The notes beneath the pieces were generated by a model. It was not told where the DNA came from and did not search any database. It saw only the letters and a program-made list of their open reading frames with translations. A program made the translations under genes and the position numbers. A stretch of DNA of 64,000 nt from Globodera rostochiensis (taxonomy: Eukaryota; Nematoda; Chromadorea; Rhabditida; Heteroderidae). The stretch covers positions 2,463,100 through 2,527,099 of the forward strand of contig JAEVLN010000015.1 in the NCBI GenBank assembly GCA_018350325.1. Reading direction: 5' to 3'. Of this stretch, positions 51,378-54,121 are shown piece after piece; the stretch's first letter is position 1; each line of letters begins with the position of its first letter.

Positions 51378-51782
51378 CTTTTAAAATAAATTCAACAATT
51401 GAGCCCATGCTTCCATAAGGATCTAAAAGTCCAAACGTTGGCTAGCTGTATTTTATGAGTTTAAGTGTTCTCACCCCCTTTTTTCATGTCCTTCAATTCC
51501 TCCTTGACATCCTTTGCTTCTTCCTTCATCAATTCCAGTTCCATTTGCTTGATCTTTTCCCCCAAATGCTAAATTATAAAACTTTAGATCTGAAAATTAT
51601 TTAAAAATTATAGATTGGGCCCGACAGAGACAGTAAAAATCGGTGTTTCCTTGATCAAAAACAAAACGCACTTTCAATTGATCGAGCTTTGCTTGTTCCT
51701 CCTCCTGCTTAGCCTTGCATTGTTTGCCATTGTTTTGCTGAATTTGGTCGTTTTTTTTGAGACGATGTTCCTTTTGACCATT
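51378..51782 (-). repeat. Inverted duplication, left arm
   Basis: About 400 bp, almost identical to the reverse complement of 52834-53237. The shared segment runs from TGGTCAAAAGGAACATCG to AATTTATTTTAAAA and includes two coiled-coil exons plus intron. Confidence 0.9.
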
Positions 51783-51948
51783 TAATTCACGGATAACATA
51801 ACTGACATAAACTAAGTTGGCTAACAAAATTTTAAGGAAAGTTTAAATATTTTACCGCATTTGCATTTCTTTTTTATATTCTTTGGCGAATGTTGGTGTT
51901 CCAATTCGGCAATTCTGTCCCGTAAAAGACGCTCTTCAGCAAATAGGC
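51475..51948 (-). pseudogene. Coiled-coil fragment of a coiled-coil/SPRY gene
   Basis: Minus exons: 51948 to about 51857 (EERLLRDRIAELEHQHSPK), 51830-51672 (IRELNGQKEHRLKKNDQ, CKAKQEEEQAKLDQLK) and 51568-51475 (HLGEKIKQMKLELMKEEAKD). The frames are open and the last two exons have the same splice sites as the plus-strand copy in 52715-54121. No ATG exon and no SPRY exons follow on this strand, so it is an orphan. A degraded copy of the upstream cassette (52090-52575) lies at its 5' side. Confidence 0.65.
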
Positions 51949-52089
51949 CTAAATTAGAGAAAGGAATAATAAATATTAATAAATTGATTTTCTTAATAAT
52001 GAACATTTAACCGTTATGATTCAATGTATTTATAGACTGAAATGAATGGACTTTTCTTTGGGCAAATGTTGACCTCAAAAACGGGGGAT

Positions 52090-52575
52090 GGACATATTTA
52101 TTCATTCACTTTTGAAAATTAATCTCTTTTCATCATAAATTTGAATGTTTTATTCGCTCACAGCAAAATGTTGACCCAAAGAATTGTGATAAAACAGAAA
52201 AGATCAAAATGCCAGAACTGTTGAATGAAAATTGCTGAGAAAGCCTGTGAATAAATGGGGAATTGGAATTTTCCGTATTTTTTGATCGATCATTCAATTC
52301 ATTTGTGAGGCAGCATGGGAACTTTGCCTTTGCATTCATTTTGAATTTGTTGGGCAAAACGCTGACCCACAAAATGGCGGTGGAAAGAGCTTAAGGACGG
52401 TGCCGATATGTATTTGGTGATGTTCATCTTCATCCCACAAATTCTAAATCAAAACTACTGACCGCTCAAAATAATTCATTAAAATTTATGAAGATAGCGA
52501 AGGATGTACTTTAAATTACACATATAAATATCTCCAAAATGGCACTTTCGTTGGTTTGAGCCTTTTTGAAGAAGT
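52090..52575 (-). repeat. Conserved upstream cassette, inverted copy
   Basis: The reverse complement matches 57640-58130 and 15455-15840: GATGAAGATGAACATCACCA, AATACATATCGGCACCGTC, AACAAATTCAAAATGAATGC, AAAGGCAAAGTTCCC. It lies upstream of the orphan coiled-coil exons. Confidence 0.65.
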
Positions 52576-52700
52576 TATTTTGCAATTAATTTTGCCGATT
52601 TTAAGTTAAATGCGCCCTTTAAAACTACATATAAATAAACATATATATAATTTTCGAAACAAAAAAACTAAATTTCGGAGATTCTAGCACCCCCCCCCCC

Positions 52701-52708
52701 CTTTCCAG
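52701..52708 (+). promoter_or_regulatory. Candidate spliced-leader acceptor before ATG
   Basis: CTTTCCAG lies only six bases before the ATG at 52715, and an 11-13-base C run precedes it. A very short 5' UTR after a trans-splice acceptor is common in nematodes. Confidence 0.5.
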
Positions 52709-52714
52709 TTTATT

Positions 52715-54121
52715 ATGTACTTTGTTAATAATATATTTTTTCTGATTTTGATGTTTTTCATTTATTCGCAATGTGCTGATTGCCATATAAATGTTGGTTT
52801 AGCTTTACCGGCAGATTTTACTGCAATCAAATTTGGTCAAAAGGAACATCGTCTCAAAAAAAACGACCAAATTCAGCAAAACAATGGCAAACAATGCAAG
52901 GCTAAGCAGGAGGAGGAACAAGCAAAGCTCGATCAATTGAAAGTGCGTTTTGTTTTTGATCAAGGAAACACCGATTTTTACTGTCTCTGTCGGGCCCAAT
53001 CTATAATTTTTAAATAATTTTCAGATCTAAAGTTTTATAATTTAGCATTTGGGGGAAAAGATCAAGCAAATGAAACTGGAATTGATGAAGGAAGAAGCAA
53101 AGGATGTCAAGGAGGAATTGAAGGACATGAAAAAAGGGGGTGAGAACACTTAAACTCATAAAATACAGCTAGCCAACGTTTGGACTTTTAGATCCTTATG
53201 GAAGCATGGGCTCAATTGTTGAATTTATTTTAAAAGGTATATTTCTTAGGGCTGAACCCTCAAAATCGATGGGATTCCGCTGCATGTCACGGGGACCTGA
53301 CGCTCTCTGAGCCCGATCGATTGATTGTCCAATTTATTGGAGAAAATTTGGGTAAATATTATTCTGTTAAAATGATTTGATTAAATCGGTTTATGAAAAG
53401 AGTTTACAAATTTTTTTGCATTAACTTCTTTTCAGGGTGTCGCTCTGTGTTCGCTGAACGGCCAATTCCAAAAAAGGATTTTGGCATTTTCTACTATGAA
53501 GTGACCATCTTGGAGCAAGAATAGTAAGTTAAATATAAATAGTCTAGCTGCTTTAGAAGCATTTTCCTTTAAAAAAAATTATATTTAGCGGTATTTACAT
53601 TGGACTTGCGACCAAACAAATGCCATTGGCCAAATGGGTTGGAGGTCACAACGGCTCTTACGCATACGAAAGTAATGGCAATTTATGGGGCCACGCTGCG
53701 GTTAAGGGCTGTTTCCATCTTGGTGAAAGTCCGTACATCGGAGGAAAGCCCAAATTTGGCGTCCACAACGTCATTGGCTGCGCCGTGGATTTGGCAACTC
53801 GCCAAATCATTTACACAAAAAATGGACAGCGTTTGGGTGAGAAAGGAAAAGATGAATATTAAAAATAGTACATATTTTATTAAATTTTATTTAAGTCCTA
53901 ATAATTTTGGATTTAGTGATTTTGTGAATGCTTGAAATATTTTGCATTTATTTCTTTTAATTATTTATTCTCTTTTTATTTTTTAAGAAACTGCCGGGTT
54001 GGATGTCGATTTTGGCGCCGATTTGTTCCCATGCGTTACGTTGTATGGACCTGGCACCAAAATTGAAGCGAATTTTGGCCCGAACTTTGAATTTAACATT
54101 GCCGATGGAATTAGAAACTGA
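52715..54121 (+). CDS. Putative secreted coiled-coil/SPRY protein (SPRYSEC-like), 297 aa, intact
   Basis: Exons 52715-52942, 53046-53139, 53250-53351, 53436-53523, 53589-53836 and 53988-54121; every phase fits and the frame is open to TGA. The N-terminus MYFVNNIFFLILMFFIYSQC has a 12-residue hydrophobic core and is a good signal-peptide candidate, with cleavage likely near SQC-AD. Then a short coiled coil (EHRLKKNDQIQQ, KQEEEQAKLDQLK, GEKIKQMKLELMKEE) and the SPRY domain (NPQNRWDSAACHGDL; CRSVFAERPIPKKDFG; KQMPLAKWVGGHNGSYAYES; FGVHNVIGCAVDLATRQ; ETAGLDVDFGADLFPC). The signal-peptide codons lie just outside an inverted duplication that supplied the coiled coil. If secreted, it would be an effector of the SPRYSEC class, delivered into plant cells. 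Confidence 0.8.

What the first reader, a model, noticed from the sequence alone, without database searches (positions are those of the whole stretch)
51378..54121. Inverted duplication placed coiled-coil/SPRY exons behind a signal peptide
51378-51782 (minus) and 52834-53237 (plus) are near-identical inverted arms containing the same coiled-coil exons. The plus arm continues into an intact SPRY domain. Its frame extends upstream across the arm boundary (TGGTCAAAAGG) into unrelated DNA encoding MYFVNNIFFLILMFFIYSQC, six bases after a CTTTCCAG acceptor. The minus arm instead has the family's normal upstream coiled-coil exon. So the signal peptide belongs only to the rearranged copy: an apparent gain of secretion by duplication.
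Basis: partly seen in the sequence, partly recalled or inferred. Interest (0 to 1): 0.8.

Follow-up and report, generated by a model that had tools for sequence, protein, structure and literature searches.

The report
Rearrangement gave nematode gene new start
In the potato cyst nematode, a small inversion-like rearrangement cut a SPRY-domain gene off from its normal front end and placed unrelated DNA, including a stretch that could encode a secretion signal, in front of it; whether the worm uses that signal is doubtful, because a public gene model splices it out.

Summary
The inverted arms are real in this assembly: 51377-51780 and 52834-53237, 403 of 404 bases identical. The plus arm runs into an intact SPRY gene, and its frame extends upstream into a hydrophobic N-terminus at 52715. 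The species is Globodera rostochiensis by its protein matches. A relative on contig C27 has front exons, one arm and SPRY in one line. So this is not a gene duplicated behind a signal peptide, but an inversion-like rearrangement with a copied breakpoint piece: the front half points away without SPRY, and the SPRY half has a new front. A transmembrane-type exon between coiled coil and SPRY, seen in C27 and two G. pallida proteins, is missing here. The secretion claim is weak. Public protein P0018 (248 aa) is this gene, but starts at 52539 and removes 52554-52876, signal frame included, as an intron. No DOG box lies within 500 bases of 52715. The only significant relative of the signal frame is a 38-codon frame; 4 of 5 codon changes alter the residue. 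Best reading: a soluble, non-secreted coiled-coil SPRY gene; secretion about 20%.

The parts
51334..51376 (-). left-junction remnant, like arm positions 299-347 (start of the intron after the coiled-coil exon of another family member); the matched stretch 51334-51382 runs a few bases into the arm; leftwards of it the C49-like flank begins
   Evidence: blastn 92% over 49 bases; C49 similarity stops at 51332 in an 18-base minisatellite
51377..51780 (-). minus arm A' (two coiled-coil-like exons and introns, no SPRY match next to it); matches a public 96-aa uncharacterized protein, P0001
51781..52382 (-). U: front of a coiled-coil SPRY gene, with exon 51856-51948; its transmembrane-type exon is shortened relative to C27
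   Evidence: alignment to C27:587834-588493
52297..52600 (.). P block: conserved 5' region of this SPRY subfamily; in its usual role it faces left here (inference from C67 and U), and it is also read rightwards into the hybrid gene in the public model
   Evidence: ten other related places listed in the genome, a lower bound
52539..52553 (+). first exon of the public gene model (MALSL, AAAATG start); GT donor after it
   Evidence: P0018 mapped; GT present in 1 of 8 P-block copies examined
52554..52876 (+). intron in the public gene model; contains the whole putative signal-peptide frame
52715..52833 (+). reading frame MYFVNNIFFLILMFFIYSQCADC..., putative signal peptide, ending at the junction with the plus arm
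   Evidence: one significant relative at C67:2256044
52834..53237 (+). plus arm A (coiled-coil-like exons: up to 52942, and 53046-53139)
53217..53238 (+). junction where about 250 bases, including a transmembrane-type exon, are missing relative to C27
53250..54121 (+). SPRY exons 53250-53351, 53436-53523, 53589-53836, 53988-54121, intact
   Evidence: PF00622 for the main exon; splice marks; each of the four matches P0018 at 100% (first, third and fourth; first, second and fourth)

Best explanation
An inversion-like rearrangement with a copied breakpoint piece split a membrane-anchored coiled-coil SPRY gene of Globodera rostochiensis. The front half (promoter block P, first coiled-coil-like exon and one copy of arm A) now points left and has no SPRY domain. 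The other copy of A, joined to SPRY, now lies behind the back side of block P and lacks the transmembrane-type exon. The hybrid gene is most likely transcribed from block P and spliced from 52553 to 52877, giving a soluble 248-residue coiled-coil SPRY protein without signal peptide or membrane anchor, which acts by binding proteins inside nematode cells. Shown: the DNA arrangement in this assembly, its relative with one arm, the intact exons, the public gene model. Inferred: the order of events, promoter use, splicing, location and action of the product.
For: C27:587834-590561 holds U, A and SPRY in one line; C7-minus and C7-plus each match half of it. C67:2255612-2256114 holds block P and the signal-like frame in the same order as 52297-52785, beside a leftward coiled-coil SPRY gene, so P-to-frame is old and frame-to-A is new. 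At the one base that differs between the arms, the minus arm agrees with C27. Two G. pallida proteins, P0035 and P0043 (301 aa), have a transmembrane-type segment ahead of SPRY; a hydrophobic stretch past residue 30 by a simple rule was seen in 3 of 124 fetched proteins, P0088 being the third. P0018 matches the exons at 100%, compared one by one, and its length fits the exon sum of 249 codons with stop. P0001 reads across the left junction.
Against: P0018 and P0001 are predictions; I could not see transcripts or reads, nor tell whether their assembly is this one. U differs from C27 by 20 of 591 sites, four other segments by 30 of 3034 (Fisher p 4.8e-5), more than one shared history of U, A and SPRY predicts; gene conversion or another donor for U is possible. 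The left flank matches contig C49, not C27, so no uninverted arrangement with both flanks was found. The GT donor of the public model is unique among 8 copies. Work on another effector family found that manual curation raised the number of genes with a signal peptide (PMC5919673, passages).
Confidence: 0.55

Rival explanations
1. One reading: transcripts are spliced at 52708 and the protein starts at 52715, so a 297-residue coiled-coil SPRY protein is secreted; the transmembrane-type exon is missing too, so nothing would hold it in the membrane.
For: Frame open and in phase for 298 codons by exon lengths; hydrophobic core 2.68 on the Kyte-Doolittle scale without charge and with a plausible cleavage site by a simple rule; transmembrane-type exon absent between coiled coil and SPRY.
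Against: Public model splices it out; no DOG box within 500 bases of 52715; 4 of 5 codon changes against its one significant relative alter the residue and that relative stops after 38 codons; it is unlike the start of the named SPRYSECs among the hits.
Confidence: 0.2
2. The locus is a decaying rearrangement product: neither front exon is used and no functional protein is made.
For: The minus side has lost SPRY and its transmembrane-type exon is shortened. The GT donor is absent from 7 of 8 P-block copies examined, and the CAG before 52715 is absent from the one relative aligned.
Against: The exons match P0018 and lengths agree, while the C27 relative has a frame break in its last exon.
Confidence: 0.15
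3. Misassembly: an inversion or chimera made by the assembler at arm A.
For: Arms nearly identical; duplicated segments of this region lie on C27 and C49; the arms lie within 18 kb of the end of C7, and the C27 copy within 10 kb of the end of C27.
Against: The loop is asymmetric and keeps the P-to-frame order seen on C67, so it is no simple fold-back artefact; P0001 crosses the left junction and P0018 spans the right one, though perhaps both come from the same assembly.
Confidence: 0.1

Closest known systems
SPRYSEC effectors of potato cyst nematodes (SPRYSEC-15, SPRYSEC-19, RBP-1)
   Same: Same SPRY expansion; best PDB match of the main SPRY exon is a truncated SPRYSEC-15 (8bv0, E 6.7e-25)
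   Different: Those start with a signal-like peptide of another type; here the signal is only a possible frame, spliced out in the public model, and coiled-coil-like exons precede SPRY
Non-secreted SPRY-domain expansion of Globodera (about 300 proteins in G. pallida, 30 with signal peptide; PMC5071358, section 7)
   Same: SPRY protein without signal peptide in the public model
   Different: Lacks the transmembrane-type exon of its nearest relatives; its front junction was found at no other place among the matches in the genome searched
Inversions by staggered breaks with inverted duplications at the breakpoints (Drosophila, PMC5080602, passages)
   Same: Works like it: an inverted copy of a breakpoint segment is seen only in the rearranged arrangement
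   Different: Not filed as a member: the left flank matches another contig, so the uninverted arrangement with both flanks was not found; here about 1 kb, inside a gene
Glutathione-synthetase-like effectors (PMC5919673, passages)
   Same: Published model of effector birth that includes gain of a signal peptide, proposed there to extend to SPRYSECs
   Different: There dorsal-gland promoter elements and expression were gained too; here no DOG box lies within 500 bases of 52715, and I have no expression data

Membership tests
SPRYSEC effector | SPRY domain of the Globodera expansion | tested here: met
   PF00622 E 9.1e-11; SPRYSEC-15 E 6.7e-25
SPRYSEC effector | N-terminal signal peptide | tested here: inconclusive
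   hydrophobic frame present, but removed as intron in P0018; no SignalP or Phobius available
SPRYSEC effector | no transmembrane domain | tested here: inconclusive
   the exon seen in C27, P0035 and P0043 is missing at 53217-53238; no transmembrane predictor was run, and the front frame, if used, could be an uncleaved anchor
SPRYSEC effector | DOG box (ATGCCA) within 500 bases upstream; common, not required (PMC4901422, PMC10946958, passages) | tested here: inconclusive
   none within 500 bases of 52715; one, at 52209, within 500 bases of the public model's start 52539; window background 0.375 per 500 bases
SPRYSEC effector | dorsal-gland expression in infective juveniles | not testable with these tools
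   no transcript data held
Staggered-break inversion | inverted copies of the breakpoint segment flank the inverted segment | tested here: met
   arms 403 of 404 identical flank 1053 bases
Staggered-break inversion | uninverted arrangement has a single copy of the segment | tested here: met
   C27 holds one near-identical copy
Staggered-break inversion | both outer flanks adjoin in the uninverted arrangement | tested here: not met
   left flank matches C49, right flank C27

The most novel reading that the evidence does not exclude
The 1053-base segment between the 404-base inverted arms is an invertible switch: recombination between the arms flips it, so that the SPRY gene is headed either by its family's own coiled-coil front (as in C27) or by the back side of block P with the signal-like frame. 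Near-identical arms and the collinearity of the flipped state with C27 allow it; damage in U and the absence of a flipped copy among the matches in this assembly speak against it.
Probability: 0.04. Interest if true: 0.85.

Novelty: new variant of a known kind. Interest (0 to 1): 0.4.

Why it matters
About one tenth of the large SPRY family of G. pallida is reported as secreted, and a review relays the suggestion that the other genes help maintain effector diversity through sequence exchange (PMC5071358, section 7). This locus is a concrete case in which a small rearrangement replaced a SPRY gene's front end, with the membrane anchor gone as well, and a relative with one arm in the same genome for comparison. 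It also warns that a signal-like frame next to a rearranged effector-family gene is not by itself a gain of secretion. A neighbouring gene (60899) suggests a simpler route: a start codon inside the family's hydrophobic exon.

Tried and rejected
Whole-contig haplotype: rejected for C27, since C27:300000-302499 has no second full-length copy; the second probe was repeat-rich and told nothing. A donor gene with a known secreted product for the signal peptide: not found; the one significant relative (C67:2256044) is a short frame, and one frame downstream of it gave no Pfam match. Two further weak matches (C80, C3; E 0.03 and 0.05) were not pursued. A simple gene duplication: rejected, since U and SPRY parts each occur once at this locus. 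The protein search with the first exon found one protein, but could only see proteins of about 55-175 residues. P0018 did not appear under the 98%-over-half filter, probably because its aligned stretches ran into introns; the exon-by-exon comparison was used instead. In one search the main SPRY exon was read in a wrong frame and so was not found; one search holds that comparison. One search lacked the C27 file by mistake; window only. One search printed wrong-strand frames for reverse-strand loci; these were not used.

Papers: passages only, except section 7 of PMC5071358 and section 11 of PMC8359618, which were read whole. Mei et al. 2015 was not read; it is known only through those papers. 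The listings (8 of 8; 15 of 84; 3 of 3; 12 of 58) showed no title or abstract start describing this locus; supplements were not searched, so absence from print is not claimed.

Full report
What is there. The window lies at C7:2463100-2527099 of a 92.6 Mb genome in 80 contigs. Its protein matches name it Globodera rostochiensis. Arms 51377-51780 (minus) and 52834-53237 (plus) are 404 bases with one mismatch and enclose 1053 bases. At the mismatch the minus arm has the base of the C27 relative; the plus arm differs. I write A for the arm, U for the front part 51781-52382 read leftwards, P for the conserved block 52297-52600, and S for the SPRY part from 53239. 'Coiled coil' is read by eye; no program for it was run.

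The relative with one arm. A genome-wide search with A gave 43 matches, the two arms included and a lower bound; one other place is near-identical, C27:588494-588889 at 98%. There U, A and S stand in one line. The minus side of C7 matches U-A of C27, the plus side A-S. Between A and S, C27 has about 250 further bases that include a transmembrane-type exon (YRIISVVLFIFLIFGYYL); in C7 they are missing, and both arms carry this junction. Two G. pallida proteins (P0035, P0043) have such a segment ahead of SPRY, so the anchored form is probably older (inference).

Where the new front came from. C67:2255612-2256114 carries P and the signal-like frame in the same order as 52297-52785 (one alignment, 82.7%), with a coiled-coil SPRY gene running leftwards on the other side. 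So P and the frame were neighbours before, and the junction at 52834 is new (inference). On C67 the frame ends after 38 codons; of five codon differences in the first 24 codons, four change the residue. The left flank (47289-51332) follows C49 at 89-97% in its main pieces and ends in an 18-base minisatellite; 51334-51376 is a scrap of another family member. The junction of A' with the scrap shares AAAAGG with the family's exon end, which suggests joining by short homology (my reading).

How it arose. An inversion of U with one copy of A, by staggered breaks or template switching, explains why A is copied and why front and SPRY parts face away from each other (inference). Against a single shared history: U differs from C27 at 20 of 591 sites, four other segments at 30 of 3034, and the left flank matches another contig. 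C27 is not a whole-contig haplotype, but its last 10 kb match window 51.4-63.6 kb in pieces of 90-100%. Whether the two are alleles or paralogues is open.

Does the signal peptide count? For: the frame is open and its exon lengths are in phase (894 bases), it is hydrophobic, and a splice-acceptor-like CAG precedes it. Against: P0018, a public G. rostochiensis protein of 248 residues, is this gene. It matches at 100% the last 22 residues of the first exon, the second exon (31 residues, with the plus-arm lysine), and the SPRY exons (33, 28, 82 and 44 residues). Its first five residues are encoded at 52539-52553, and the intron 52554-52876 removes the signal frame. The GT after that exon occurs in 1 of 8 P-block copies examined, so this front exon too is special to the locus. 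P0018 is a prediction. The published line-19 and line-22 annotation used RNA-seq hints (PMC8359618, passages), but I do not know that P0018 comes from it, and in another family manual curation raised the number of genes with signal peptides (PMC5919673, passages). Signal-like starts occur in 9 of 313 ATG-started frames of 40 or more codons in this window, nested frames and true genes included, and in 18 of 1127 in random sequence. No DOG box lies within 500 bases of 52715; one, at 52209, lies within 500 bases of the public model's start, against a window average of 0.375 per 500 bases.

Verdict. It is best read as an inversion-like rearrangement with a copied breakpoint piece, not as a duplication into a secreted gene, and the signal frame is only one of two possible fronts. 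The most probable product is a soluble, non-secreted coiled-coil SPRY protein without its relatives' membrane anchor.

Context. The PF00622 search listed 150 SPRY matches, a lower bound because 150 of 429 candidates were scored. The transmembrane exon type has 43 matches at E up to 10. The next gene in the window has MGFISLFILFIFSLNFVQA at 60899, like the start of the public protein P0052. There a start codon inside the family's hydrophobic exon gives a more conventional-looking signal peptide (inference).

Noticed in passing
window 60785-61393: Neighbouring coiled-coil SPRY gene whose hydrophobic exon carries an ATG directly before a signal-peptide-like stretch, MGFISLFILFIFSLNFVQA, that may derive from the family's transmembrane-type exon; public protein P0052 starts alike.
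   Followed up: partly
genome-wide, e.g. L054-L065: A transmembrane-type exon of the form DP-RI-GAIVLFIF gives 43 matches (E up to 10), many of them in contig regions rich in SPRY matches.
   Followed up: partly
window 52297-52600 and 57654-57957; C67, C19, C27 copies: Conserved P block near coiled-coil SPRY genes; a start-like stretch beginning CCAAAATGG and ending CTTTCGTTG is kept on its back strand in the 8 places examined.
   Followed up: partly
window 47750-49776; C27:560441-569727; L020 from about 6280: About 108-110-base tandem repeats near SPRY loci on several contigs.
   Followed up: no
C27:570795-576363 and 592312-596683: Inverted segmental duplication, identity from 98.7% down to 87%.
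   Followed up: no
L009 about 5400-5540: The C27 relative has a frame break in its last SPRY exon, whereas the window copy is intact.
   Followed up: no
window 11173-11478 and 11748-12053: Another close inverted repeat, 306 bases at 98%, 269 bases apart.
   Followed up: no
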